A stretch of 64,000 bases of DNA from Actinomycetes bacterium (lineage in GTDB: Bacteria > Actinomycetota > Acidimicrobiia > Acidimicrobiales > RAAP-2): contig JAJYNX010000071.1 in NCBI GenBank assembly GCA_021786095.1, positions 1 through 64,000 of the forward strand. The letters run 5' to 3'. The translations under genes and the position numbers were made by a program. The notes under the pieces are model-generated. The model searched no databases. It was given only the letters and a program-made list of their open reading frames with translations, and had not been told where the DNA came from. Shown piece by piece: positions 7,434 through 28,953 of this stretch (positions are counted from its first letter, which is position 1; each line of letters begins with the position of its first letter).

Positions 7434-9106
7434 TGCTAGAGAGCGTACCGAGCCCGAGTGAGGTGCAGGCCACCTTCGCCGCCACCCTCGTCGACGAGTG
7501 GGTGCGGGCCGGGCTGCGCGAGGTCGTGATGTGTCCCGGGTCACGATCGACGCCGCTGGTCCTCGCCTGCAGCGCCCGTGACGACGTCACGCTTCACGTG
7601 CGCCTCGACGAGCGCAGCGCCGGCTTCTTCGCGCTGGGGCGGGCGCTGGCCGGCGGGCGGCCCGTGGCGGTCGTGGTGACCAGTGGAACGGCTGCGGCGG
7701 AGTTGCACGCGGCGGTGGCCGAGGCGGATCTCGCGGGCGTGGCGCTGCTGGTGGTGACGGCGGACCGACCCCCCGAGCTGCGCGGCGTCGGAGCGCCCCA
7801 GACGATCATCCAGCGCGACCTCTTCGCCTCGATGGTGCGCCGCTTCGAGGAGCCGGGCGTGGCGCGCTGGGAGGCGTCGGGAACGTGGCGCCCCCTGGCG
7901 AGCCGTCTGTGGCGCGCCGCGAGCGGTGACGTCACCTCGGGATCACCCGGACCGGTGCACCTGAACGCCGCCTTCGTCGAGCCGTTGGTGGCCACTGCGC
8001 GTCCCACGCCGCCGGGGCGCGCGCACAACAACCCGTGGCGCCAGTCGACGCCCGCGCCTCCGGTTCGCGCCGCGCTCCAGGTGGGTGGGGCGCGCGTCCT
8101 GGCCGTGGTCGGACACGGCGTCGCGCGCGAGGTCGTCGAGCGATGCTGGGCACTGGACTGGGTGCCCGTCGGGGATGCCACGACGCCCGCGACGCTGCCC
8201 TACGTGGATGCGCTGCTGCGCGGGGACGACTTCGCGCAACGGGCTCGACCGACGCTCGTGGTGCGCCTCGGGGGATTGGCGGCGTCCAAGGTCCTCCAGG
8301 AGCGGCTGCGCGAGTGGGGCGTGCGCACGGTGGCATTGAGCGGGGCTGGCGAGGTGGCGGACCCCGACGGCCTGGTGAGCGAGGTCGTCGCGGGTCTGCC
8401 CGACGCCGAAGACGCGACGTTGCGTGGCGACGCGCGGTACGCGCAGTGGTGGCGGGGCGCGTCGGCGCGCGTCGAACAGTGGGCCAGTGAGCGGATCGAC
8501 GCGGGAGGCCTGAGCGAGCCCGCCGTGGCGAGGGTCGTGGTGGCGGCGAGCACGCACCACGACGTGGCGCTCGTGGTGGGATCGTCGATGCCGGTGCGCG
8601 ACGTGGAGTGGTGGGCGCCGGCTCGCCACGCGGCGACGTACGCGAACCGGGGCGTCAACGGCATCGACGGCGTCGTGTCCACGATGCTGGGCGTCGGTGC
8701 GGGGCAGCGCGTGCTCGGCCTGGTGGGCGACCTGACGGCGTTGCACGACGTGTCGGCCCTGGTGGACGGCGTGGGTGGCGCGGACTCGTGCGCGGTGCTG
8801 GTAGTCGTCGACAATCACGGTGGTGGCATCTTCTCCTTTCTGGCGCCCGCGCGCGAACTGGCGCCCGAGCGTTTCGAGCGACTGTTCGCCACGCCGCGCG
8901 GACACGACTTGGTCGCCGTCGCGCGCGCGTTCGGTCACGGGGGTGAGCGCATCGCCACCGCCGACGGGTTGCGCGCCGCCATCGACGCGGGCCTGACGCG
9001 TCCGGGATTGAGCGTGCTGGTGGTCGACGTGCCCTCGCGCGAGGAGAACGTGACGCTCCACGACGCCCTGGTGGACGAGGTGGCGGCGCTGGGGGAGTGG
9101 CGATGA
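7433..9106 (+). CDS. menD: SEPHCHC synthase MenD
   Basis: Thiamine-diphosphate enzyme joining isochorismate and 2-oxoglutarate, the first committed menaquinone step. Motifs: PGSRSTP near residue 35, the cofactor-activating glutamate in RLDERSAGFFALGRA, and the ThDP/Mg segment GDLTALHD with VDNHGGG. TTG at 7433 is chosen because GGAGGA lies six bases upstream and it gives 557 residues, close to the E. coli enzyme's 556. GTG at 7427 is possible but overlaps the ribosome binding site. Its promoter must lie inside menH. It overlaps ccdA by four bases (ATGA). Confidence 0.9.
   Translation: MLESVPSPSEVQATFAATLVDEWVRAGLREVVMCPGSRSTPLVLACSARDDVTLHVRLDERSAGFFALGRALAGGRPVAVVVTSGTAAAELHAAVAEADLAGVALLVVTADRPPELRGVGAPQTIIQRDLFASMVRRFEEPGVARWEASGTWRPLASRLWRAASGDVTSGSPGPVHLNAAFVEPLVATARPTPPGRAHNNPWRQSTPAPPVRAALQVGGARVLAVVGHGVAREVVERCWALDWVPVGDATTPATLPYVDALLRGDDFAQRARPTLVVRLGGLAASKVLQERLREWGVRTVALSGAGEVADPDGLVSEVVAGLPDAEDATLRGDARYAQWWRGASARVEQWASERIDAGGLSEPAVARVVVAASTHHDVALVVGSSMPVRDVEWWAPARHAATYANRGVNGIDGVVSTMLGVGAGQRVLGLVGDLTALHDVSALVDGVGGADSCAVLVVVDNHGGGIFSFLAPARELAPERFERLFATPRGHDLVAVARAFGHGGERIATADGLRAAIDAGLTRPGLSVLVVDVPSREENVTLHDALVDEVAALGEWR
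7442..7447 (-). promoter_or_regulatory. Possible -10 box of menH
   Basis: Minus-strand TACGCT lies eight bases before the menH ATG. It sits within the first codons of menD on the other strand, so the two genes share their 5' ends. Confidence 0.4.
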
Positions 9107-9849
9107 TCGCCGTGACGCTGCCCAGTTCGCTGCTGGCGGCCTTCCCCCTGGCCTTCGCCGCGGGACTCGTGTCGTTCGTGTCCCCGTGCGTCCTGCCACT
9201 TCTCCCGGGCTACGTGGCCTTCCTCGGTGGCGCCACGGGCCGGGTGGACGGGCGTTCCGGGCGGGGTCGCGCGGTGGTGGGATCCATCGCCTTCATCGTT
9301 GGCTTCGCCCTCGTGTTCGTCAGCTTCGGGGCCCTGTTCGGCGGCTTGGGCAGCTCCCTGCGCGCCCACCAGCGCCTGCTGGAGGTGGTCTTCGGTGCGG
9401 TCACCATCGCCCTGGGCCTGTTCTTCGCGGGGTGGTGGCCGTCGTCGTGGCTCGAGCGGGACCGACGCGTGCACCGCGTGCCGCGGGTCTCGGTGCTCGG
9501 CGCGGCGCTGCTGGGATTCACCTTCGCCCTGGGCTGGACGCCGTGCGTGGGTCCCACGCTCGGCGCCATCCTCGGGCTGGCGGCGTCGTCGTCGGGCGCG
9601 ACGGCGCTGCGTGGCTCAATACTGGCCTTCGTGTACTGTCTCGGACTCGGCCTGCCGTTCGTGATCGCCGCGCTGGCCACCGAGTGGATGGCGAGCGCGT
9701 CGGCCTGGCTGCGACGCCACGCGGTGCTGATCGGCCGCGTCGGCGGCGTGCTGCTCATCGTGATCGGCCTCGCGGAGGTGTCGGGGGCGTGGCAGACCTT
9801 CGTCCTCTGGCTCCAGGTGCACTTCCCCGCCAGTACCACTCTCTTGTGA
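9103..9849 (+). CDS. ccdA: Cytochrome c biogenesis protein CcdA
   Basis: Membrane thiol-disulfide carrier of the DsbD/CcdA transmembrane family, which passes electrons from thioredoxin across the membrane to keep apocytochrome or copper-site thiols reduced. Two conserved cysteine motifs, SPCVLPLLPGY early and GWTPCVGP mid-protein, mark the redox pair. About six helices fill 248 residues. ATG at 9103 overlaps the menD stop and follows GGGGGAG. No ResB/ResC partner is nearby. A link to the oxidase locus 9 kb away is plausible but inferred. Confidence 0.88.
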   Translation: MIAVTLPSSLLAAFPLAFAAGLVSFVSPCVLPLLPGYVAFLGGATGRVDGRSGRGRAVVGSIAFIVGFALVFVSFGALFGGLGSSLRAHQRLLEVVFGAVTIALGLFFAGWWPSSWLERDRRVHRVPRVSVLGAALLGFTFALGWTPCVGPTLGAILGLAASSSGATALRGSILAFVYCLGLGLPFVIAALATEWMASASAWLRRHAVLIGRVGGVLLIVIGLAEVSGAWQTFVLWLQVHFPASTTLL

Positions 9850-17332: not shown

Positions 17333-17896
17333 ATGGCCGCCATCTCCAGCAACGACATAAAGAACGGCATCACGCTGAAGGTGGACGACGGGCTGTTCAC
17401 GGTGATCGAGTTCCAGCACGTCAAGCCGGGCAAGGGCGGCGCCTTCGTGCGGACCAAGTTGCGCAACGCGCGTACCGGCGCGGTCATCGAGCGTACCTAC
17501 CGGTCCGACGAGCGTCTCGAGCAGGCGATCATCGACAAGCGCGACGTGCAGTACCTGTACCGCGACGGCGACGACTACGTCTTCATGGACCAGTCGACGT
17601 ACGATCAGCTCTCGATGCCCGCCGCGAGCCTCGGCGAGGCGGCGAACTTTCTCGTCGAGACGGGCAAGGCCATGCTGGTCCTGCATGACGACGAGATCAT
17701 CGGTGTGGAGCTGCCGGCGTCGGTCGAGCTCACGATCACCGAGACCGAGCCGGGAGTCCAGGGTGACCGGGTCTCGGGGGCGCGTAAGCCCGCCACGCTG
17801 CAGACGGGCTACGTCGTCCAGGTTCCGCTCTTCGTAGGGCCGGGCGAGGTGATCAAGGTGGACACCCGCAGCGGTGAGTACATCACGCGCGCCTGA
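17333..17896 (+). CDS. efp: Elongation factor P
   Basis: Translation factor that relieves ribosome stalling at polyproline. Three beta-barrel domains in 187 residues, with Lys34 in the tip loop KPGKGGAF at the position modified in E. coli. No modification enzyme genes (epmA, earP) are nearby, so the lysine may be unmodified. GAAAGG precedes the ATG. The stop overlaps the nusB start by one base (TGATG). Confidence 0.95.
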   Translation: MAAISSNDIKNGITLKVDDGLFTVIEFQHVKPGKGGAFVRTKLRNARTGAVIERTYRSDERLEQAIIDKRDVQYLYRDGDDYVFMDQSTYDQLSMPAASLGEAANFLVETGKAMLVLHDDEIIGVELPASVELTITETEPGVQGDRVSGARKPATLQTGYVVQVPLFVGPGEVIKVDTRSGEYITRA

Positions 17897-18294
17897 TGAG
17901 CGAGTTGGGTGCGAGGCGCCACCGCGCGCGCGAGCGCGCCCTCGAGATCCTCTACGAGGCGGCCATCAAGGAACGCCCGCTCGAGTCGGTGTTGGCCGCC
18001 CTGACGGTTGCCCCCGACGACTACGCCGTGGCGCTCGTGCGCGCCGCCGAGGCGTCCCGCGAGCGCGCCGACGTGCTCATCGAGCAGAACTCGCACGCCT
18101 GGGCGCTCGAGCGTCTCGCGCTGATCGATCACCTGATCATGCGTCTCGCCCTGGGGGAGTGGTGGAGTGACGGCGCGCCGCCCACAGCCGTGATCCTGGA
18201 CGAGGCGGTGGAGCTGGCCGTGACGTACTCGACCGACGGATCGGGCGCCTTCGTCAACGGCGTGCTGGCGGCGTGCGTCGCCGGGGGGCGCTGA
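17896..18294 (+). CDS. nusB: Transcription antitermination factor NusB
   Basis: RNA-binding helical protein that works with NusE/S10 in rRNA antitermination. The basic N-terminus RRHRARERALEILYEA and the C-terminal segment ILDEAVELAVTYSTDGSGAFVNGVL are the family hallmarks. 132 residues. Translationally coupled to efp through TGATG, the same pair as in mycobacteria. Confidence 0.93.
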   Translation: MSELGARRHRARERALEILYEAAIKERPLESVLAALTVAPDDYAVALVRAAEASRERADVLIEQNSHAWALERLALIDHLIMRLALGEWWSDGAPPTAVILDEAVELAVTYSTDGSGAFVNGVLAACVAGGR

Positions 18295-18300
18295 AGAGAC

Positions 18301-20046
18301 GTGCCGGGCATGTCGCCACGGACGCTCGATCTGACGAGCAGTCTGGTGGTGAGCCCCTTCCACCACGAGGCCTTCGTCACCCTCCTCGTCTGGATCTGTG
18401 TACTGGGTGAGCTCGTCCTCGTGGGCTCGGTCGTCACCCGACGAATCTTCACGTTCAATCTGGGGCCATCGAGTCTTGAGGAGCCACGCGCGCGCACGTT
18501 GCTGCGTCGCGCCTTCGGCGCCCTGTGGCTGCTTGACGGTGTCCTGCAGTTCCAGTCGGCGATGCCCTTGGGGCTGGGCTCGCGGGTGGTGCGACTCATG
18601 GCGGTGGGCACGCCCGGGTGGCTTCACACGATGATGCTCGACGCGGTGGGGATCTGGAACCTGCACCCCGTGGTCCTCGCCGCGGGGGTGGCGTGGCTGC
18701 AGGTGGGATTGGGGATCGGGCTGCTGGTCGCCAGTGGGACGACGAGCCGGTGGTTCGCGGGAGCGTCGGTGGCCTGGGCGACCCTCGTGTGGCTCCTCGG
18801 CAATGGCGCCGGTGGGCTCTTCGCACACGGCGGCTCCGTGCTGTTCGGCTGGCCCGGGGCGACGTTCTTCTACGCGCTCGCGGGCGTCTTCCTGGCGCTG
18901 TCGCCTGCGGCGTTTCGGCGTTTGTTCTCGCGCGTCACTCTGCGAGTCGTCAGCGTGGTGCTGGGCACCGGCGTCGTCCTCCAGTGCCTGCCCGCGGCCA
19001 ACTTCTGGCGCGGCGGGCCGAGCAACGCCGTGGCCGCGATGGCCCGATCGATGACGAGCGCGGCTCAGCCCCACTGGCTGGCGGCGATCGTGCGAGCCAC
19101 CGGCGACGTCGCCGCGACGATGGGCGGCGGGTTCAACGTCGTCGTGATCCTCTGGCTTGGCGTCACGGCAGTTGGTCTGTGGACGTCGGTCGGCACCCAA
19201 CGTCGTTGGGCGGTGTGGTCGCTCGTGGCGGGGGCGCTCGTGGGGTGGGTGGCGATCCAGGACACCGCCCTGTTCGGTGGGCTGGCGACCGACGTGAACT
19301 CTCTGGTGCCCCTCGCCGTACTGGTCGCGTGCGCCGCGCCACGCCTGGTGCAGGGCACTGCGCCGTCGCGGCGCGCGGTGCGGATACCACGCTCGGTCAG
19401 CGCGGGCGTGAGCGCGGTCGTGGTCGCCTTCGCCGTCGCGATGGTGGCGGTGACCGTGGTCGCGATGGGCGTGGCGAGCGCGTCGGGCGCCGAAACCGCA
19501 CTGTTCGTCGCGCGCAACGGGCCGGCGGTCGCGACCGACACGCCGGCGCCGCGCTTCACCTTGATCGATCAGCGGGGGCAGCCCTACTCGCTCGGCGAGC
19601 ACCGCGGGCGGGTGACGCTGCTCACCTTCCTCGACCCGCACTGCTGGACGGACTGCCCGCTGCTGGCTCAGCAGTTGGCGCACCTGCGCTCGCAACTTCC
19701 CAGGCGAGCGCGTCTCGACATCGTGGCGATCGCCGCCGACCCCTACTTCGAGAGTCTCCACGACGTGCGGACCTTCATCGCGACCCGGGGCCTGGCTCGC
19801 GTACCCGACTTCTACTTCGTCACTGGTCCACTGGCCACGATGCGACGGGTGTGGGCGCGCTACGGGGTGGCGGTGATCATGCGTCGGGGTGATCGCATGA
19901 GCATCCACTCCGACGTGATGTTCCTGATCTCGCCGCGCGATCGACTGCGCTGGGTGATCCCCGACGTCCCGTCCGCGAGCTCGTCCGCGCAGGCGTCCGC
20001 CGTGGCAGAGCTTCGCGGACTCCTCGCTGGCGAGGGCGTCCGCTGA
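18301..20046 (+). CDS. Large membrane protein fused to a SCO1/SenC copper chaperone domain
   Basis: A 581-residue fusion. Residues 1-400 hold about 10-12 membrane helices; the segment LLDGVLQFQSAMPLG resembles DoxX-like membrane proteins of actinobacteria. Residues 410-575 are a SCO/SenC thioredoxin-fold domain starting at PAPRFTLIDQRGQPYSL, with copper ligands C448 and C452 (CWTDC) and H536 (SIHSDVMFLI). SCO proteins load copper into the CuA site of oxidase subunit II, and this gene opens the oxidase locus. The domain probably faces outward. GTG start is weakly supported; ATG at 18310 is an alternative. The role of the membrane part is unknown. Confidence 0.8.
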   Translation: MPGMSPRTLDLTSSLVVSPFHHEAFVTLLVWICVLGELVLVGSVVTRRIFTFNLGPSSLEEPRARTLLRRAFGALWLLDGVLQFQSAMPLGLGSRVVRLMAVGTPGWLHTMMLDAVGIWNLHPVVLAAGVAWLQVGLGIGLLVASGTTSRWFAGASVAWATLVWLLGNGAGGLFAHGGSVLFGWPGATFFYALAGVFLALSPAAFRRLFSRVTLRVVSVVLGTGVVLQCLPAANFWRGGPSNAVAAMARSMTSAAQPHWLAAIVRATGDVAATMGGGFNVVVILWLGVTAVGLWTSVGTQRRWAVWSLVAGALVGWVAIQDTALFGGLATDVNSLVPLAVLVACAAPRLVQGTAPSRRAVRIPRSVSAGVSAVVVAFAVAMVAVTVVAMGVASASGAETALFVARNGPAVATDTPAPRFTLIDQRGQPYSLGEHRGRVTLLTFLDPHCWTDCPLLAQQLAHLRSQLPRRARLDIVAIAADPYFESLHDVRTFIATRGLARVPDFYFVTGPLATMRRVWARYGVAVIMRRGDRMSIHSDVMFLISPRDRLRWVIPDVPSASSSAQASAVAELRGLLAGEGVR

Positions 20047-20149
20047 GAGACTTCTTCGCGATTGAACCGTGATGCGTCGAAGTACTGGATCCAATTAGGT
20101 CTGTCGCCACGCGTCACCAGTGAAGAAAGGCACTCGATACGTGGCCCCC
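20047..20149 (+). other. Convergent intergenic gap after the SCO fusion
   Basis: A 103-base, locally less GC-rich stretch between two convergent genes. I see no convincing terminator hairpin or small gene. Confidence 0.4.
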
Positions 20150-20503
20150 TTATGGCTGAGTGGGCGGGGCCTCACCACGTGGGTCGTCGCGTGAGTCGTC
20201 GCGTGGCTCGTGGTCACCGTGAACGCGGCGCAGGTACTCGTTGTAGGTCGAGAGGGCCTCAGAGTCTGTCTCTGAGCCATTTTGCTGCCTTTTCGGAGTC
20301 GCTCCCCGCTCGTCCGCGAGGAGCCGGTGCCACAGGTAGACGGCGTAGGAGCCGAAGATGGGCCACTCGAACACGTAGGCCCACGACAGGGTGTTGCCAC
20401 CCAGTGCTCGGTAGATTTCAATAATAAATGCAGAAATGCAGATGAACTCGGCTGTGAGAAGTCCTAGGTGAATCCCAAGGATTCTCTTACTATTGCTCGC
20501 CAC
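20150..20503 (-). CDS. Small membrane protein with the SWAYVFEWP motif (copy 1)
   Basis: A 117-residue protein with two hydrophobic segments (about residues 8-30 and 44-58) and a hydrophilic tail. The signature GGNTLSWAYVFEWP at residues 35-48 recurs almost unchanged in the gene at 27602, making them paralogs at the two sides of the oxidase genes. Function unknown; an oxidase accessory role is inferred from position. The first 35 codons use ATT, AGA, AGT and CTT, unusual for this GC-rich window. GTG start with TAAAGT eight bases upstream and a short GGAG. It is transcribed away from the cupredoxin-coxB operon. Confidence 0.75.
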   Translation of the reverse strand: MASNSKRILGIHLGLLTAEFICISAFIIEIYRALGGNTLSWAYVFEWPIFGSYAVYLWHRLLADERGATPKRQQNGSETDSEALSTYNEYLRRVHGDHEPRDDSRDDPRGEAPPTQP

Positions 20504-20582: not shown

Positions 20583-21272
20583 ATGTCAAAGGGAGGGAGA
20601 TTGGCTACCAGTCTCGTGCTCTTCTTGGTGGCGGTCGGCCTGGTGGTGTGGGGGGTTGCGGGCCTGCTGACGCCGGGGACGCCGGGCGGGGAGATGAACT
20701 TCACGCACGCCCAGGCCCCGGGCCAGCCGGTCAACCTCACGGTTCAGACGGTCGGCGCCATCGGATTCGGCTCGCACCCCACCTGGGTGTCGTACCTGAC
20801 CAAGGACCCCGCGTCGGGCCACTGGATCCAGGACAACACGTGGGTGCTGCCGGCGCACACGGTGATCGACATGACGGTGTACCAGTACGACTCGGGCAGC
20901 CCGCTGCGCAACCAGGAGTGGGGACAGGTCCAGGGCACCATCGGTGGGTCGGCGACCATCAACGGCGCGAACTACAGCGTGTACAACTCCAACTCCGGCA
21001 ACGGGGTCGGTCACACCTTTTCGGTACCCGAGTTGGGCCTGAGCGTGCCGCTGATCGGCGTGTCGGCCAACGCCCAGGTCTGCGGCGCGGGTCCCTGCCA
21101 CACGTCCTCACCGCACAACGTGATCAAGTTCAGCTTTAAGACGCCCGGGCCGGGCAACTACCACTGGCAGTGCTTCGTGCCCTGCGGGCTGGGCTACCTG
21201 TTCGGAAATGGAGGCCCGATGTCAACGGAGAACTACATGGGTGGCTTCTTGGACGTGGTGCACGCATCATGA
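20583..21272 (+). CDS. Membrane-anchored cupredoxin-like protein with a C-x3-C site
   Basis: A 229-residue protein with one N-terminal helix (residues 7-29) and an outward beta-sheet domain of cupredoxin type. Potential metal ligands are H178 (SSPHNVIKF), C197 and C201 in YHWQCFVPCG, and M213 or M219. This resembles a CuA site (H...CxExCxxxHxxM) but lacks the glutamate carbonyl position and second histidine. It is neither a normal type 1 site nor a normal CuA site. ATG start set by GAGGAG six bases upstream. It overlaps coxB by four bases (ATGA), so an oxidase electron-entry or copper-relay role is likely but inferred. Confidence 0.78.
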   Translation: MSKGGRLATSLVLFLVAVGLVVWGVAGLLTPGTPGGEMNFTHAQAPGQPVNLTVQTVGAIGFGSHPTWVSYLTKDPASGHWIQDNTWVLPAHTVIDMTVYQYDSGSPLRNQEWGQVQGTIGGSATINGANYSVYNSNSGNGVGHTFSVPELGLSVPLIGVSANAQVCGAGPCHTSSPHNVIKFSFKTPGPGNYHWQCFVPCGLGYLFGNGGPMSTENYMGGFLDVVHAS

Positions 21273-22264
21273 GCGACGCCACCACCTCCAACGACGCCCC
21301 CGTCGTGCACCACCTGCGCCGGATGACGAGCATCTGGGTGGTGCTCTCGGTGATCGGTGACCTGCTGTTCTGGTTCCTCGTCGGCCCCCACGTACCGCCG
21401 GGAGCCATGACCGACCAGGCGGTCAGCAACCGCTTCGATTTCAACATCCTCTTCGTGATCGCCCTGCCCGTGATGATCGGGGTCTGGGTGTACCTGGGCT
21501 ACGTCATCGTGATGTGGAGCGAGAAGCGGTCCACGGCACCGGCCTTCGGCGGTCCGGAGGCGCGGGGCAACCGTCGCACCCAGGTGCTGTGGATCACCAT
21601 CACCTCCATCGCGGTGCTCTTCGCCGCCGGCTTCGGCACGGTCGAGTTGATCATCAACAACGGGTCGGGCGGAGGCGAGGGCCCGAACCCGGTGTGGATG
21701 CCCACGGGCGCGGCCCAGGCCGAGACCGCGGCGCTCAAGGGAACGGCTACCTGGGCGCCCGGTAGTGACAAGGTCCTCCCGGTGCAGGTGATCGCCCAGC
21801 AGTGGAAGTTCACCTACCGCTACCCGACGTTCGGCGGCTTCGAGACGCCCAACCTGATCCTGCCCGTGAACACGGAGATCGCCTTCAACGTCACGTCGTT
21901 GGACGTGATTCACAGCTTCTGGGCGTACCAGCTGAGTGTGAAGGCGGACGCCAACCCCAGCGTGAACGACGTGGCGTTCACCAAGACCGAGCACACGGGG
22001 AACTTCACGGTGCGCTGCAGCGAGCTCTGTGGACTCTGGCACGGCGCGATGTTCGACTACGGCAAGGTCGTCTCGCAGAGCGCGTTCGAGAGCTGGGCCA
22101 CGTCGACCGAGGCGGCGAACGCCGCCAACACGAAGTACCTGCCGCCCTTCGCGTGGACCTACGTGCCCGACGCCAATGGCGCCGCGGGTGGGTACTACCC
22201 CGACGGCAACCTGACGCCGTACTCGAAGTCCCAGCTCTACGGCGCGGCCCAGGCGGCGTCGTGA
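21269..22264 (+). CDS. ctaC: Cytochrome c oxidase subunit II
   Basis: Subunit II of a heme-copper oxidase, accepting electrons at the binuclear CuA centre. Two membrane helices near residues 20-40 and 60-80 and a third hydrophobic stretch near 105-125 precede the cupredoxin domain. The CuA ligands are complete: DVIHSFW and CSELCGLWHGAM. No heme c motif, so it is not a caa3 type. The ATG overlapping the upstream stop gives 331 residues; the ORF-track start at 21170 is inside the cupredoxin gene. The C-terminal 50 residues (KYLPPFAWTYVPDANG) extend beyond the usual end. Confidence 0.92.
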   Translation: MSDATTSNDAPVVHHLRRMTSIWVVLSVIGDLLFWFLVGPHVPPGAMTDQAVSNRFDFNILFVIALPVMIGVWVYLGYVIVMWSEKRSTAPAFGGPEARGNRRTQVLWITITSIAVLFAAGFGTVELIINNGSGGGEGPNPVWMPTGAAQAETAALKGTATWAPGSDKVLPVQVIAQQWKFTYRYPTFGGFETPNLILPVNTEIAFNVTSLDVIHSFWAYQLSVKADANPSVNDVAFTKTEHTGNFTVRCSELCGLWHGAMFDYGKVVSQSAFESWATSTEAANAANTKYLPPFAWTYVPDANGAAGGYYPDGNLTPYSKSQLYGAAQAAS

Positions 22265-22325: not shown

Positions 22326-24284
22326 ATGACCATCAGCGCCGAACGTCCGACCGACACGGTGGTCCCCCACGAGACGCCACCGACGCCGCCGCGCATTCCG
22401 TGGGCGCAGCGTCCCGGGTGGATGAGCCAGCACCTGGGCACCGCCATCGTGGTGGGGTTCATCGGCTACGTGTTCGGACACTGGTTGGGCAACTACATCG
22501 CCAGTGGGTACCCCTACATCGTCAACTCCGGTCAGAACTCCATCGCCGACACCCTGGCGCTCGCGTTCATGGTCGTCGGGTGGCTGCTGGGCGTTGGAGC
22601 GCTCAACTACCCCCTGGCCAAGTTGATCGGTCGCGAGGCGCCCGCCGAGGTCGAGGTCAAGGGTTGGTCGAAGTACTTCCGCTACAACACCGACCACAAG
22701 GTCGTGGGGCTGCAGTACGTCGTGGGCGTGATCCTCTTCCTGTTCACGGGTGGACTGCTGGCGATGGCGATCCGTACCGAGCTGCTGAACCCGACGACGC
22801 ACGTCTTCGGTCCGGGCACCTACATCGAGATCGTGAGCGAGCACGGCACCATCATGATGATGATGGCGACGTCGATCGTGGTCGGCCCGCTGGGCAACTA
22901 CCTCGTTCCGCTGATGATCGGGTCCCGTCGCATGGCCTTCCCGCGGATCGAGGCGTTCAGCTTCTGGATCTTCATGGCCGGCTACGCGGTCATCTTCTCG
23001 GCCCTGCCCTACGGTGGATTCACCACCGGCTGGACGGGGTACGCGCCGCTGCAGACGCAGAATGGTCCCGGCATGGTCTCGTACCTGCTGGGCTTCGCGG
23101 TGGTGGGGCTGGGGATGATGGCCGCAGGCTTCAACATCGCGGCGACCATCATCAACTATCGAGCCCCGGGAATGACGTGGAGCCGGGTGCCGATCTTCGT
23201 GTGGTCGATCCTCGCGACGGCCGCACTCTTGACGTTGGCCACACCGGTGCTGTTCTCCGCGGGCTTGTTCGGGCTGCTCGACAAGACGGTCCAGACGGCC
23301 TTCTACGTGGGCGAGCACGGCGGGAGCTCGTACCTGTGGGAGAACCTGTTCTGGTTCTTCGGGCACCCCGAGGTCTACATCATGGCGTTGCCGGGCTTCG
23401 GGATCGTCGGCGAGATCATGCCGGTCTTCTGTCGAAAGCCAGTCTTCGCCTATAAGGTGTCGGCGGCCGGCATGATCGGCGTCGCTCTGCTGTCGTTCTT
23501 CGTCTGGCAGCACCACCTGTTCCAGAGCGGCATCAACCCGGACATGCGCCCGCTGTTCATGCTGACCACGGAACTGATCTCGATCCCCACGGGCTTCATC
23601 TTCCTCGTGGGGATGGGCACGATGTACCGAGCCAAGATCCGTTTCGAGATACCCATGCTCTTCGCGATGGCCCTCTTCTTCAACTTCCTGATCGGTGGCA
23701 TCACGGGGGTGTTCCTCTCCGACGTGCCGGTGAACGTCACGGTGCACGGAGGCTTCTTCGTGCTCTCGCACTTCCACTACACGATCATGGGTGGGTTGCT
23801 GTTCGCCTTCATGGCGGGCCTGTACTACTGGCTGCCCAAGATGACCGGGCGAATGATGAACAAGAAGATCGGTCTCTGGCACTTCTGGACGATGTTCATC
23901 TTCTTCAACCTGACCTTCTTCCCGATGTTCATCATCGGCCTCCTGGGTCAGCCGCGCCGGGTGTTCACCTACGCGAAGAATCTGCAGGGGCTGAACGACT
24001 TCTCCTCGATCAGCGCCTTCCTGCTCGGATTCTCGTTCCTGATCTTCGCCGCCAACATGGTGTGGTCGCTGTGGATCAGTCCGCAGAAGGCGCCCGCCAA
24101 CCCCTGGGAGTCACTCGGCCTGGAGTGGCAGACCGCGACGCCGATCCCGCTGCACAACTTCGACCGGATCCCCGTGATCCTCGCCGACCCGTATCACTAC
24201 AGCGAGGAGAACCCGCCAGCGGTTGCTGACCTCGGTGAAGATCTGGTCGTCACTGCCGCCTCGTCCGATTCCAACCCGTCGTAG
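22326..24284 (+). CDS. ctaD: Cytochrome c oxidase subunit I, divergent A-type
   Basis: Catalytic subunit reducing oxygen at the heme-CuB centre. Ligands are intact: H173 (SEHGTIMM), H347 with cross-linked Y351 (GHPEVY), H396/H397, and H482/H484 (SHFHY); E349 and QPRR are also kept. But the D-channel entrance Asp is R202 (GSRRMAFPRIEA), the following Asn is E209, the K-channel lysine is I425 (IPTGFIF), and the Mg-site Asp is G475 (VHGGFF). Residues 30-115 form an extension with two extra helices before the usual TDHK start. 652 residues. ATG follows GAGGGAGAAC. Oxidase identity is firm; proton path and pumping are open. Confidence 0.92.
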   Translation: MTISAERPTDTVVPHETPPTPPRIPWAQRPGWMSQHLGTAIVVGFIGYVFGHWLGNYIASGYPYIVNSGQNSIADTLALAFMVVGWLLGVGALNYPLAKLIGREAPAEVEVKGWSKYFRYNTDHKVVGLQYVVGVILFLFTGGLLAMAIRTELLNPTTHVFGPGTYIEIVSEHGTIMMMMATSIVVGPLGNYLVPLMIGSRRMAFPRIEAFSFWIFMAGYAVIFSALPYGGFTTGWTGYAPLQTQNGPGMVSYLLGFAVVGLGMMAAGFNIAATIINYRAPGMTWSRVPIFVWSILATAALLTLATPVLFSAGLFGLLDKTVQTAFYVGEHGGSSYLWENLFWFFGHPEVYIMALPGFGIVGEIMPVFCRKPVFAYKVSAAGMIGVALLSFFVWQHHLFQSGINPDMRPLFMLTTELISIPTGFIFLVGMGTMYRAKIRFEIPMLFAMALFFNFLIGGITGVFLSDVPVNVTVHGGFFVLSHFHYTIMGGLLFAFMAGLYYWLPKMTGRMMNKKIGLWHFWTMFIFFNLTFFPMFIIGLLGQPRRVFTYAKNLQGLNDFSSISAFLLGFSFLIFAANMVWSLWISPQKAPANPWESLGLEWQTATPIPLHNFDRIPVILADPYHYSEENPPAVADLGEDLVVTAASSDSNPS

Positions 24285-24304
24285 TAGTGAGTGGAGATCC
24301 AGCC

Positions 24305-24958
24305 ATGACTGACATGATCCAGGACCGGGGAGGTCCCCAGAGCACCCCGGAGGAAGCGGAGTTCGAGCTGCGCGCGCATCTCGGAGCGGTGTGGACGGGG
24401 GGGCGGCTCTTCATCGCCATGTACACGTTCATCCTGGCCTCCCTGGCGTTCTCGTACTTCTACCTGCGCTCCAGCAACAACGCTCAGCTGTGGCGGCCCC
24501 ACCACGTGACGGCACCGACCTACTACGGCTTCTTCATCTACGCATTCCTGCTGCTCAGCGCGGGTCTGGCCCTCTACGGTCAGTGGCGACTACGTCGTGG
24601 CAGCGTGACCGACTGGCAGGTCGCCGGCTGGACCGGGGTGGGATCGGGACTGCTGGCGCTGTTCCTGCAGATCTGGGAGTTCCAGAAGGTGCCGTTCTAC
24701 CCCGGTTCGAGCGGCTACGCGTCGACGTTCATCGGCTTCGCGGTGATCAACATCGCGACCATCGTCATCGGTACCTACTGGCTGGAGACGACGCTGGCGC
24801 GAGCGTTGCGCCTGCGCCGCGAGATCGGTGGTGTCGACGCGGTGCTCTCCCAGCACCCGTCGGCCCAGTCGCTGCGCGCGAACATCGCCTCGATGACCTA
24901 CTTCTGGGGTTTCATCGCGTTAGCGAGCACGCTGTTCCTGTTCATGTTCTACCTCTAG
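24305..24958 (+). CDS. ctaE: Cytochrome c oxidase subunit III
   Basis: Third core subunit, 217 residues with five predicted helices, the short bacterial form. The segment LQIWEFQKVPFYPGSSGYASTFIGF matches the conserved LQ.WE...F.....G.FF..TG.H region, though the usual glycine-histidine end is altered. ATG at 24305 is preferred because TGGAGATCC lies just upstream; GTG at 24287 is possible. Follows subunit I closely, so it belongs to the same operon. Confidence 0.87.
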   Translation: MTDMIQDRGGPQSTPEEAEFELRAHLGAVWTGGRLFIAMYTFILASLAFSYFYLRSSNNAQLWRPHHVTAPTYYGFFIYAFLLLSAGLALYGQWRLRRGSVTDWQVAGWTGVGSGLLALFLQIWEFQKVPFYPGSSGYASTFIGFAVINIATIVIGTYWLETTLARALRLRREIGGVDAVLSQHPSAQSLRANIASMTYFWGFIALASTLFLFMFYL

Positions 24959-25153: not shown

Positions 25154-25939
25154 GTGAGCTCGTCGCGGCGACTGCGTGACGCGGTCGCGGTCGCGGGCTT
25201 TGCGCTGTTCTTTGTTCTGCTGGTGCCGCCGCTGGCGTCGTGGGCGCGGCGGTACGAGTTCGTCCAGGCCATTCAGTTCTGTGGTTTCGCCGTGGTCGTG
25301 CCCGCACTGGTGGTCGCCGGAGCGCCGTGGCGACGCCTTGGCTTGTCGACGGGACCCGAGCCGGTGGTGAGCGCCGACGGTGTCGTGGCCGCGGGTGGGG
25401 GGTGGATCGATCGGCGTTGGGCTCGACGACTGGGTCGTACCGGCCACGTGCGAGCGGTGACGGCCGGGCTCGTCGCGGCGGGTCTGGTGATCCTATGGCG
25501 CTCAGCGCCCGTGGTCGACCTCCTCGTGCGTGATCCGTGGTTGGAGGTGGTCGAGGCCGTGACGCTCGTGGGTGCGGGAATCGCGCTGTGGGTGGATCTG
25601 ATCGAGTCGCCGCCCCTGCGTCCCGCGACGACCCGGCCCTACCGGATCGGTCTGGCGGCCGTGTCGATGTGGGTGGTGTGGGTGGTGGCGTACTTCAATG
25701 GCATGTCGCACTCGTCGTGGTACGGCGCCTTCCACCACGTGGCGGGCCACGGGCTGTCGCTGATGGCCGACCAGCAGTTCACCGCGGGCGTGATGTGGTT
25801 GCTCTCCGCGAGCGCCTTCATTCCGGTGGTGTTCTGGAACCTGGTCCACTGGCTCGCGTCCGAGGATGACCCGGACGAGGAGCTTCATCGCCTGGTGCGC
25901 GACGAGCGTACGCGCGGCTTCCACCGGCCGACGAGTTAG
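25154..25939 (+). CDS. CtaG-like membrane protein (divergent copy)
   Basis: A 261-residue membrane protein with about six or seven helices, related to the caa3_CtaG assembly family. The late motif SLMADQQFTAGVMWLLS matches the DQQ..G..MW signature also present in the second copy at 28015. The early histidine-rich HMxxH motif is missing (QFCGFAVVVPALVVAGAPW instead), so copper handling may differ. It probably helps assemble the CuB site of the oxidase encoded just upstream. GTG start. Ends 23 bp from the convergent hypothetical gene. Confidence 0.72.
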   Translation: MSSSRRLRDAVAVAGFALFFVLLVPPLASWARRYEFVQAIQFCGFAVVVPALVVAGAPWRRLGLSTGPEPVVSADGVVAAGGGWIDRRWARRLGRTGHVRAVTAGLVAAGLVILWRSAPVVDLLVRDPWLEVVEAVTLVGAGIALWVDLIESPPLRPATTRPYRIGLAAVSMWVVWVVAYFNGMSHSSWYGAFHHVAGHGLSLMADQQFTAGVMWLLSASAFIPVVFWNLVHWLASEDDPDEELHRLVRDERTRGFHRPTS

Positions 25940-25962: not shown

Positions 25963-26637
25963 TTACGGCGTCGGGATCAGTGGGAGCGACGGCAGGTCGA
26001 TTGGCGTGAGTTTGGTGCGCAGTATCTGCTCGGCTCTCGCGAGGTCGGCGCGCGCTCGCGCGCGCTGGCGGGCGAGATTGCTCTCGCGCATGCGTAGGTT
26101 GGCCAGCGCGTGCGCGTTCCCGGGGTGGGCGAAGAGGTACTGGATGTCCTCGATCGCCCCCAGGGCGCTGGCGCTGACCCAGGCCACCGCCACGGCCTCC
26201 AGGTGGTCGATGTTGAGGCCGGCTCGCGTGTCCACGGCCTGGAAGTTGTTGGTGAGGTCGTACATGGGGCCGCTGGCGAAGGTGCACGCGGTCTGGTCGC
26301 CCACCAGCTGGCCCGGTACGGCGGCGCGGTCGGCCGGCGTCAAGCGGTGCGCGAGCTCGTCGCGGTAGAAGGAGAAGGCCTCGGTGACCGCATAGTCGCA
26401 GGGCTTGATGTCGCCGTTGATCTGGGCCAGCGAACCGTTCTGGGCGGAGATGTCCTCGGCACGGGTGATGTGGTGGGGCAGGTCGCTGATGATCGAGACC
26501 CCCACCACGACGATGAGGGCGGCCGTGAGCAGCACCCACGGACGGCGATACCAGACTGCCTTGGTGATCGTGAGCGAGGAGGCGGGAACGGACGCGGGAC
26601 TGTAGTCGCGCGAGCGTGGAGTCTGGTCGAACGTCAT
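25963..26637 (-). CDS. Hypothetical single-helix membrane protein coupled to a SCO gene
   Basis: A 224-residue protein: about 30 cytoplasmic residues, one helix (PWVLLTAALIVVVGVSII), then an outward helical domain with two cysteines (KPCDYA, QTACTF) that could form a disulfide. No family recognised. Its ATG overlaps the stop of the SCO gene (ATGA), so the two are co-translated and may act together in copper insertion. Function otherwise unknown. Confidence 0.68.
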   Translation of the reverse strand: MTFDQTPRSRDYSPASVPASSLTITKAVWYRRPWVLLTAALIVVVGVSIISDLPHHITRAEDISAQNGSLAQINGDIKPCDYAVTEAFSFYRDELAHRLTPADRAAVPGQLVGDQTACTFASGPMYDLTNNFQAVDTRAGLNIDHLEAVAVAWVSASALGAIEDIQYLFAHPGNAHALANLRMRESNLARQRARARADLARAEQILRTKLTPIDLPSLPLIPTP

Positions 26638-27464
26638 CGCAGCAGGCTATCGACTTCGAGGGCGATTCCTCGCGCGAATCGTGCGATGTCGCGGGCTCCG
26701 AGATGGTAGGCGCCCGAGGCGTTCTCGTCGCCGAAGGGCACGGCGAGAGCCGCCTCGCGGCCGGTGGGCCCGATGAAGTAGAGGACGTTGTTGTGCACGA
26801 GGCGCCCGTTCTGGGGGTAGTAGCGGATCGAGACGCCGTAGGCGCGCCAGATGGGGTCCATCCGCGCGAGCGCACCGGTCAGGAAGACCGAGGATCCACC
26901 AGTTCCGGTGCGCGTCAGGGCTGGCGGGTTCGGCTCGACCCCGAGGTGGTGGGGGTCGGTGTTCACGAGTGCCACGGTGAGTCGTGCGCTCGCGCCCACG
27001 AGCTGGCGGGCGCGGCGCAACTCCGCACCGATGACGGGACACAAGTCGTTGCAGGACTGGTCGACGAAACCCACGACGACGACCCGCCCGCGCTGCGCGC
27101 CGAGGCTCCACGGTCTCCCGTACTGATCGGTCAGAGTGAGGGTCGGCGCGGCACCGTGGCGGGGCGTGAGGGTCATGAGTGCCGCCAGGGTGCGCCCGAC
27201 CGTCGGGGAGGTCGCGCGAGTGGTGGTGTGGGTGGTGGGGGTCGGGGGGGTGGAGGGCGAATTGCCCGCGAGGGTCTCGACGAGGACGCCGCTCAGCACG
27301 ACGACCGCCAGTATTGCCGCAGCGAACGCCAGGAACTTCGTCGGCGTCGGCGGGGGTCCCTCGCGCAGCACCGCGGCCCGGTCGATCGGGGTCCGGGGAG
27401 AGGCGAAGGCCTCGCGACGCTGCTGCTCACTGAGCGGCTGACGGTTCGACGACTGACTGCTCAC
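26634..27464 (-). CDS. SCO1/SenC-family copper chaperone
   Basis: A 276-residue membrane-anchored thioredoxin-fold protein. One helix at residues 43-66, a Thr/Pro-rich linker (70-90), then the SCO domain with C138 and C142 (CNDLC) and H224 (LVHNNVLYF). These are the three copper ligands of SCO proteins that mature CuA. GTG at 27464 is preceded by GAAGGG; the ORF-track start at 28130 runs through other genes. Second SCO of the locus, besides the fusion at 18301. A minus-strand TACACT about 50 bases upstream could be its promoter. Confidence 0.83.
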   Translation of the reverse strand: MSSQSSNRQPLSEQQRREAFASPRTPIDRAAVLREGPPPTPTKFLAFAAAILAVVVLSGVLVETLAGNSPSTPPTPTTHTTTRATSPTVGRTLAALMTLTPRHGAAPTLTLTDQYGRPWSLGAQRGRVVVVGFVDQSCNDLCPVIGAELRRARQLVGASARLTVALVNTDPHHLGVEPNPPALTRTGTGGSSVFLTGALARMDPIWRAYGVSIRYYPQNGRLVHNNVLYFIGPTGREAALAVPFGDENASGAYHLGARDIARFARGIALEVDSLLR

Positions 27465-27589
27465 CCCGGCCCTTCTCGTGCCCGCGACGCGCGGTGGTCG
27501 CTTCAGTGTACGGCTGGGACCCGTCTCACGGCCCCGCTTGTCTGGCAAAAACCTTAGGGAGCGGGCCGTGCGCGGTGGCGGGTCACCGG

Positions 27590-27601: not shown

Positions 27602-28018
27602 GTGGAGCCGCTCGGGGATGAGGTGCCCGCGTCGTCGCGCACGTCGCGACCGCGTGCGCGCGGTGGCGAGGCGTGGCGTTTGCACGCCCTCGCCCTGGTC
27701 GGGGTGCTGCTGTGCACCGCCGCGTTCTGGTTCGAGTTGCATCGCGCCGAGGGTGGAAACGAGTTGAGCTGGGCCTACGTGTTCGAGTGGCCTCTCCTGG
27801 CGGTCTTCGTTGTCTACATGTGGTGGAAGTTCCTGCACCCGGAAGACTCCGCGACCCCCCGGGAGGAGAGCGGGGAGAGGCGCACGCGGGACGTCGCGCC
27901 GGAGGCGTCCGCCCAGTACGACGCGATGCTGATGGCGTGGCAGGAACACCAGCGTGCGCTGCACGAGGCGCAACGAGCGGCCGACGAGGCCCTGCGCCAC
28001 GAGGCCGACGCGTCGTGA
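27602..28018 (+). CDS. Small membrane protein with the SWAYVFEWP motif (copy 2)
   Basis: A 138-residue protein: basic N-terminus, a helix (residues 29-46), the signature GGNELSWAYVFEWP at 51-64, a second helix ending in YMWWKFL, then a charged, probably coiled tail (QRALHEAQRAADEALRH). Paralog of the gene at 20150. It overlaps ctaG by four bases (GTGA), which ties the family to oxidase assembly. The exact role is unknown. Confidence 0.75.
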   Translation: MEPLGDEVPASSRTSRPRARGGEAWRLHALALVGVLLCTAAFWFELHRAEGGNELSWAYVFEWPLLAVFVVYMWWKFLHPEDSATPREESGERRTRDVAPEASAQYDAMLMAWQEHQRALHEAQRAADEALRHEADAS

Positions 28019-28953
28019 GCGCCCTCGCGCGCCACTGGAGCTTCGACCCGATGGTGGTGGTGCTGGCGTTCACCGCGCTCGCCCACGAGCTGGGTTTGGC
28101 GCGCCTGGCGCACCGATCCACACTCGCCAACGCCCAGCGGCGTCGGCGTCGCTCGCTGCTCTTCTACGGTGCACTCGTCGTGCTGGTCCTGACGATCGCG
28201 TCGCCCCTGGACTACTGGGCGAACGACTACTTCTACGTCCACATGATCGAGCACATCCTGTTGATGTTCGCGGTGCCGATGCTCGTCGTGCTCGGCGCGC
28301 CGTGGACCCCGCTGCTCTTCGCGCTGCCGGTGGGAGCCCGCCGGCGACTGGGGCGCTTCGTGTACCTCTCGCCGCGGGCGCGGGGGCTGCGCGGGCTGGG
28401 CCGGGTCGCGCGCAGCCCGTGGGTGGCCTGGGGGTCGTTCAACGCCGCCATGCTGGTGTGGCATATCCCGTCGTGGTTCGAGCTGGCCGAGCGCAACCAG
28501 GCGGTGCACGTCTGGCTGATGCACGGGAGCTTCCTGGTGACGGGCGTGCTCTTCTGGCTCCAGTTCTTGCCGTCGAGTCCCATGAAGCCGAAGACTGGAC
28601 CCCTCTGGCAGGTGGGCGCTCTGCTGTCGACGAACGCGATCATGACGATGTTGGCGATCTCCATGAGCATCCTCACCACGGTCAGCTGGTACCCGAGTTA
28701 CTCGCACCTGCGCGGCGTGACGCTCTCACCCTTCGCCGACCAGCAGATCGGGGCGGCCATCCTGTGGGTGTGCGGGGACTTCTGGGCGCTGCCGGTGCTC
28801 GGCATGGTGATCCGCCGGGCGATGGACCAGCAGGGATCCCTGGCGGGCGCGATCGATCGAGCCATCGGGCGCTCGACGGCGCCGTCGTACTTCCGTGGCG
28901 TCGCCACGGGCGTCGTGCCCGTCGCGGGGGAGGTCGAGCGTCCCGGTCCGTGA
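28015..28953 (+). CDS. ctaG: Cytochrome c oxidase assembly factor CtaG
   Basis: Membrane protein of the caa3_CtaG family (Bacillus type, unrelated to Cox11) needed to form active oxidase. 312 residues and seven helices. Signature segments: YVHMIEHILLMFAVPMLVVLGAPW, MLVWHIPSWFELA and FADQQIGAAILWVCGDF; the histidines may bind copper. GTG at 28015 is set by the GTGA overlap with the preceding gene; the ORF-track start at 27673 is within it. It closes the oxidase locus. Confidence 0.88.
   Translation: MSALARHWSFDPMVVVLAFTALAHELGLARLAHRSTLANAQRRRRRSLLFYGALVVLVLTIASPLDYWANDYFYVHMIEHILLMFAVPMLVVLGAPWTPLLFALPVGARRRLGRFVYLSPRARGLRGLGRVARSPWVAWGSFNAAMLVWHIPSWFELAERNQAVHVWLMHGSFLVTGVLFWLQFLPSSPMKPKTGPLWQVGALLSTNAIMTMLAISMSILTTVSWYPSYSHLRGVTLSPFADQQIGAAILWVCGDFWALPVLGMVIRRAMDQQGSLAGAIDRAIGRSTAPSYFRGVATGVVPVAGEVERPGP

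What the first reader, a model, noticed from the sequence alone, without database searches (positions are those of the whole stretch)
18301..20046. SCO copper chaperone fused to a 10-12 helix membrane module
SCO proteins are normally single-helix anchored. Here an intact SCO domain with all copper ligands sits behind about 400 residues of DoxX-like membrane protein. The fusion suggests the membrane part moves copper or electrons to the SCO domain.
Basis: partly seen in the sequence, partly recalled or inferred. Interest (0 to 1): 0.6.

Follow-up and report, generated by a model that had tools for sequence, protein, structure and literature searches.

The report
SCO copper chaperone with membrane module
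In a group of uncultured soil and peat actinobacteria, the protein that helps load copper into the respiratory oxidase is permanently fused to an undescribed membrane protein whose conserved surface points to the same side as the copper chaperone, suggesting a one-piece copper-loading device for the oxidase.

Summary
ORF 18301-20046 (+, 581 aa) is one uninterrupted frame: about 400 residues of membrane protein followed by a SCO1/SenC domain with CxxxC (C448, C452) and H536. It is not a frameshift artefact. Full-length fusions occur in 32 of 37 genomes of the genus, and 91 non-redundant intact fusions from MAGs all keep the CxxxC. It usually sits between NusB and the cox genes.

The membrane part is 10 TM helices in the model: TM1, two tandem 4-TM repeats (half against half, probability about 99%), and TM10. 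It matches no Pfam family. "DoxX-like" holds only as remote kinship: best profile match DoxD at 46%, fold hints to NACHO and GGCX.

The module also exists unfused, as a separate clade. Nearly all invariant loop residues lie on the SCO side, including M88, H122, M247 and M251; no module cysteine is conserved, which argues against thiol electron transfer. M247 is 91/91 in intact fusions but lost in two of three lineages that lost SCO copper ligands. The genus mostly lacks PCuAC.

Best reading: a CuA assembly factor in which the membrane module is SCO's copper-delivery or docking partner. Assembly role likely; copper relay plausible, unproven. New variant of a known kind.

The parts
18301..20046 (+). 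gene of the fusion protein, 581 aa, GTG start 6 bases after the stop of nusB; ATG at codon 4 is an alternative start
   Evidence: conserved as one frame in 32 of 37 genus genomes
18340..18435 (+). TM helix 1 (residues 14-45), N-terminus predicted outside
   Evidence: AF2 model; positive-inside count
18487..18897 (+). membrane repeat 1 (residues 63-199): 4 TM helices and outer helices; holds Q83, Q85, M88, H122
   Evidence: half-half profile match
18904..19350 (+). membrane repeat 2 (residues 202-350): 4 TM helices; holds M247, M251, D321, T330, D331, N333
19039..19053 (+). M247-x3-M251 on an outer helix, 91/91 in intact fusions
19390..19482 (+). TM helix 10 (residues 364-394) leading out to the SCO domain
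19528..20031 (+). SCO1/SenC domain (residues 410-577), thioredoxin fold
   Evidence: Pfam PF02630; PDB SCO1/ScoI matches
19642..19656 (+). CxxxC copper ligands C448 and C452
   Evidence: 91/91 in intact fusions
19906..19908 (+). His copper ligand H536
   Evidence: 90/91
17896..18294 (+). nusB, upstream neighbour, conserved context
   Evidence: Pfam NusB; synteny
20150..20503 (-). small conserved membrane ORF between the fusion and the cox genes
   Evidence: conserved context; no Pfam match
20583..21272 (+). cupredoxin/CuA-like exported protein (by eye), conserved before coxB
   Evidence: synteny; no Pfam match
21170..22264 (+). cytochrome c oxidase subunit II (true start probably inside the ORF)
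   Evidence: PF00116; TIGR02866 partial
22326..24284 (+). cytochrome c oxidase subunit I
   Evidence: PF00115 E=3e-128
24287..24958 (+). probable cytochrome c oxidase subunit III (by position)
   Evidence: no Pfam match
25154..25939 (+). Caa3_CtaG-type assembly factor
   Evidence: PF09678 E=1.3e-20
26634..27476 (-). second SCO protein, ordinary single-helix type
   Evidence: PF02630 E=2.6e-6
27673..28953 (+). second Caa3_CtaG-type assembly factor (true start inside the ORF)
   Evidence: PF09678 E=1e-43

Best explanation
It is a cytochrome c oxidase maturation factor, most likely for the CuA site of subunit II: a SCO copper chaperone domain carried on the outer face of a dedicated 10-helix membrane platform. 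The platform is a tandem duplication of a 4-TM unit (plus one helix at each end) whose conserved outer surface sits on the same side as the SCO domain. The most likely division of labour is that the membrane module does what a separate partner does elsewhere (PCuAC, CtaK): it holds copper through Met/His residues (M88, H122, M247, M251, perhaps the N-terminal Met) and/or docks apo-subunit II, and copper passes through C448/C452/H536 of the SCO domain to CuA. Shown: the fusion, its conservation, the cox linkage, the duplication, the conserved outer face (the topology is a prediction). Inferred: role in CuA assembly (about 0.75). Inferred and weaker: copper handling by the module (about 0.35) rather than pure docking (about 0.35).
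For: Conserved single frame with all SCO ligands. Locus EFP-NusB-fusion-small ORF-cupredoxin-COX2-COX1 kept in most loci whose flanks are long enough, and a second clade beside CtaG/COX2. Model of 10 TM plus SCO, pLDDT 85.6; SCO part closest to SCO1/ScoI structures. Loops: inside 7.4 Lys/Arg per 43 residues, outside 3.6 per 132, so SCO and N-terminus are outside; 24 near-invariant residues in outer loops against 1 in inner loops. Conserved M/H/C of the whole protein are M4, M88, H122, M247, M251, M389, C448, C452, M533, H536, all outside except M389. M247 is 91/91 in intact fusions but V/L/L in the NrfD-linked paralogues and F in L112, all without a full SCO ligand set. PCuAC is absent from the own genome and 22 of 25 genus genomes; CopD hits in the genus are short and, but for one, below cut-off. 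Review PMC9145763: CuA assembly uses Sco plus PCuAC or another small copper protein; Sco itself has one TM segment or a lipid anchor.
Against: No experiment. Many outer residues besides Met/His are invariant (Q83, Q85, W119, D321, T330, D331, N333), so conservation may serve structure or another ligand. L100 lost SCO ligands but keeps M247 and M251; the co-loss rests on two independent events. Unfused relatives also conserve M88 and H122 and are not all near copper genes. A second, ordinary SCO sits at the other end of the same cox cluster, so the fused one may have another target. The N-terminal Met motif depends on the start codon. Absence of PCuAC rests on MAGs.
Confidence: 0.55

Rival explanations
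1. Docking scaffold only: the membrane module binds no copper; it anchors and orients the SCO domain next to nascent subunit II or I, and copper reaches SCO from elsewhere (for example through the CtaG proteins or the conserved cupredoxin).
For: Outer-face conservation fits a protein interface as well as a metal site; two CtaG proteins and a conserved cupredoxin-like protein lie in the same cluster.
Against: Soft-metal side chains are among the invariant residues, and M247 varies where the SCO ligands are lost. Unfused modules exist without a SCO domain to carry.
Confidence: 0.3
2. Electron supply: the module is a quinol- or thiol-linked reductase (DoxX/DoxD/MauE manner) that keeps the SCO cysteines, or those of subunit II, reduced.
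For: Remote profile kinship to DoxD, 46% for one half and 33% for the other; fold hint to GGCX, which uses vitamin K hydroquinone; the DoxD/MauE superfamily is linked to quinone or thiol redox (own knowledge).
Against: No conserved cysteine in the module in 91 fusions, whereas MauE relatives show a conserved CxCF motif (seen). A CcdA reductase is present in the window at 9097-9849 and in nearly all genus genomes. GGCX match has E=0.2 only.
Confidence: 0.1
3. Copper importer: the module carries copper across the membrane to the cytoplasm or back, with SCO as its outer receptor.
For: Multi-helix protein with conserved Met/His; CopD hits in the genus are weak.
Against: Conserved residues cluster on the outer side, with one near-invariant residue in inner loops; no ligand ladder through the membrane was sought in coordinates, which were not available.
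Confidence: 0.1
4. Gene-fusion artefact or pseudogene.
For: One MAG locus (L079) shows the frame broken near the N-terminus.
Against: 32 of 37 genus genomes and 91 non-redundant intact frames with invariant ligands.
Confidence: 0.01

Closest known systems
SCO1/SenC (Sco, YpmQ, PrrC) copper chaperones
   Same: Thioredoxin fold, CxxxC...H ligands, cox linkage
   Different: Known Sco proteins have a single TM segment or a lipid anchor (PMC9145763); this one has 10 predicted TM helices and about 400 extra residues
DoxD/DoxX/MauE superfamily
   Same: 4-TM unit; profile probability 46% (half 1) and 33% (half 2) to DoxD, reversed controls 0.1-0.2%; half-module fold match to NACHO/TMEM35A, probability 0.98, which I recall as DoxX-related
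   Different: Tandem duplication, no Pfam hit, 0.1-0.4% to DoxX itself, no conserved cysteines
CtiP of Corynebacterium glutamicum
   Same: Large membrane protein joining copper-handling parts for aa3 oxidase assembly (PMC9145763)
   Different: CtiP joins CopD and Caa3_CtaG parts; it has no SCO domain, and C. glutamicum has no Sco
PCuAC / CtaK copper partners of Sco
   Same: Proposed role: copper supply for CuA through Met/His ligands
   Different: Those are soluble or lipoproteins of unrelated sequence; PCuAC is absent here
HTTM / vitamin K gamma-carboxylase (GGCX)
   Same: Best whole-module fold hit, probability 0.94, TM-score 0.43
   Different: E=0.2; profile comparison 2-7%; no PF05090 hit in the own genome

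Membership tests
SCO1/SenC (PF02630) | Profile match above cut-off | tested here: met
   41.3 bits against 22.8
SCO1/SenC (PF02630) | CxxxC and distal His copper ligands | tested here: met
   C448, C452 91/91, H536 90/91
SCO1/SenC (PF02630) | Thioredoxin fold like SCO1 | tested here: met
   Foldseek to SCO1/ScoI, probability 1.00
SCO1/SenC (PF02630) | Single TM or lipid anchor | tested here: not met
   10 predicted TM helices; usual but not ligand-defining, so the domain is a member and the architecture is a variant
SCO1/SenC (PF02630) | Binds copper and is needed for CuA | not testable with these tools
   needs experiment
DoxX (PF07681) | Profile match | tested here: not met
   own-genome hits lie at C36 and C113 only; hhalign 0.1-0.4%
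DoxD (PF04173) | Profile match | tested here: inconclusive
   no direct hit; hhalign 46% and 33% for the halves, controls 0.1-0.2%
MauE (PF07291) | Profile match and cysteine motif | tested here: not met
   hhalign 1-4%; no conserved Cys in the module
HTTM/VKG_Carbox (PF05090) | Profile match | tested here: not met
   no hit in own genome; hhalign 2-7%; fold hint only
CopD (PF05425) | Profile match | tested here: not met
   own-genome hit lies at C34, below cut-off

The most novel reading that the evidence does not exclude
The module founds a new family of copper-handling membrane proteins: a duplicated DoxD-like fold with an outer Met/His site that replaces PCuAC, occurring alone, with a Met-rich domain (L043), in NrfD/cupredoxin clusters, and, as here, permanently joined to SCO.
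Probability: 0.3. Interest if true: 0.7.

Novelty: new variant of a known kind. Interest (0 to 1): 0.5.

Why it matters
How copper reaches Sco and CuA in bacteria without PCuAC is open. A natural covalent fusion names the partner: if the module handles copper or docks subunit II, the transfer can be studied in one purified protein. The module is also an unnamed membrane family (no Pfam model) with a clear internal duplication, of interest for the evolution of the DoxD/DoxX superfamily.

Tried and rejected
Frameshift or two-gene explanation: rejected by 32 of 37 genomes and 91 intact frames. DoxX membership: rejected. MauE and HTTM membership: rejected by profile, although GGCX is the best whole-module fold hit at E=0.2. 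Thiol relay through the module: disfavoured, no conserved Cys. The alignment of fused plus unfused modules (A2) was too diverse for a contig scan; the fused-type alignment worked, so unfused modules are under-sampled. Foldseek on the whole model returned only SCO-type hits in the listed rows, so the module was modelled alone. Literature searches found no description of this fusion in the held library, which lacks most subscription papers.

Full report
Observation. ORF 18301-20046 (+) is one open frame of 581 aa. The SCO1/SenC model matches residues 418-548 at E=1.9e-10, with CxxxC at C448/C452 and H536. Residues 1-400 have no family match above cut-off in Pfam or NCBIfam. The start is GTG, 6 bases after the nusB stop; an ATG at codon 4 is possible.

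The fusion is real. In 32 of 37 genomes of the genus the same full-length fusion is found with no internal stop; G024 is cut by a contig end; G021, G022, G027 and G030 have none. Two genomes of other families, G051 and G056, also carry it. A scan of 84,980 species genomes gave 198 relatives, 80 kept, nearly all MAGs named Acidimicrobiaceae, Acidimicrobiales or Actinomycetes, with one Solirubrobacteraceae and one Streptosporangiaceae MAG. 91 non-redundant intact fusions keep C448 and C452 91/91 and H536 90/91. Across 397 genomes of the phylum the module is rare, 14 hits.

Context. Usual order: EF-P, NusB, fusion, small ORF on the minus strand, cupredoxin-like protein, COX2, COX1. In the window, COX3-like, CtaG, an ordinary SCO and a second CtaG follow. 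The ordinary SCO lies within about 6 to 11 kb of the fusion, on the opposite strand, in 12 genomes of the genus (read). A CcdA lies at 9097-9849 and about 9 kb upstream of the fusion in many relatives.

Architecture. AF2 of the fusion with 25 homologues: pLDDT 85.6, pTM 0.84, TM helices at 14-45, 63-82, 123-143, 147-167, 187-199, 202-229, 276-299, 303-319, 335-350 and 364-394, then SCO. The module alone: pLDDT 90.7, pTM 0.89. First half against second half by profile: probability 99%, E about 1e-17 to 1e-19, reversed controls 0.1-0.2%. So the module is a tandem duplication of a 4-TM unit.

Kinship. No member of 21 fused or unfused modules matches Pfam meaningfully. Profile comparison: DoxX 0.1-0.4%, DoxX_2 0.3-0.6%, MauE 1-4%, HTTM 2-7%, DoxD 46% and 33% for the halves; for scale, known superfamily pairs give DoxX-DoxD 89%, DoxX-MauE 82%, MauE-DoxD 45%, DoxX_2-DoxD 7%. 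Foldseek of the module: no hit below E 0.001; best GGCX (probability 0.94, E 0.2) and NACHO/TMEM35A (probability 0.98, one half, E 0.7). So 'DoxX-like' is acceptable only as a remote superfamily hint.

Evolution. A tree of 113 modules splits with 100/100 support into 14 unfused modules and 99 of the fused type. Six rows scored as unfused fall inside the fused clade: three (L034, L111, L196) have a degenerate C-terminus without the copper ligands, L034 and L111 lying in an NrfD/FeS/cupredoxin cluster; L130, L131 and L198 look like broken or contig-cut fusions. The simplest history is one fusion followed by losses; the root is a midpoint root, so this is not proven.

Topology and conservation. 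Inner loops hold 7.4 Lys/Arg in 43 residues, outer loops 3.6 in 132; near-invariant residues are 24 in outer loops, 1 in inner loops. All conserved Met, His and Cys except M389 lie outside: M4, M88, H122, M247, M251 in the module; C448, C452, M533, H536 in SCO. No module Cys is conserved. The loop assignment uses the model and is a prediction. M88 and H122 are shared with unfused modules; M247 and M251 are invariant only in intact fusions. Among fused-clade members without a full SCO ligand set, M247 is V, L, L (one clade), F (L112) and M (L100): two losses in three lineages, suggestive only.

Mechanism. CuA assembly elsewhere uses Sco with PCuAC or another copper protein (PMC9145763). PCuAC is absent here and in 22 of 25 genus genomes. 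I therefore propose that the module is the built-in partner of SCO: a copper-holding and/or subunit II docking platform. The oxidase role is inferred from linkage and SCO biology; copper handling by the module is a hypothesis. Electron supply is disfavoured by the missing cysteines and the presence of CcdA.

Verdict. Observation confirmed, interpretation partly supported, new variant of a known kind.

Noticed in passing
L034:5629-7314 (own genome, contig C97): Paralogue of the fusion whose SCO-like end has lost the copper ligands, downstream of an NrfD membrane subunit, a 4Fe-4S protein and cupredoxin-like genes; similar clusters at L042 and L111.
   Followed up: partly
window 20150-20503 and 27602-28018: Two related small membrane ORFs, one beside each SCO gene, each sharing a motif like LSWAYVFEWP; with two SCO and two CtaG genes the locus looks partly duplicated.
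   Followed up: no
window 9097-9849: CcdA-type reductase next to a MenD-like gene (by eye), with conserved distance to the fusion in many relatives.
   Followed up: partly
L043:4356-6512: Unfused-clade module joined to a Met-rich exported C-terminal domain with no Pfam match.
   Followed up: no
L036 and L039: Unfused modules directly followed by a DUF5134 membrane protein; L037 has a cupredoxin gene directly before the module.
   Followed up: no
window 20583-21272: Conserved exported protein with a CuA-like CxxxC stretch and no Pfam match, between the fusion and coxB.
   Followed up: no
window 17809-20094, minus strand: Long antisense shadow ORF of 761 aa that a simple GC-frame caller prefers over the real gene.
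   Followed up: partly
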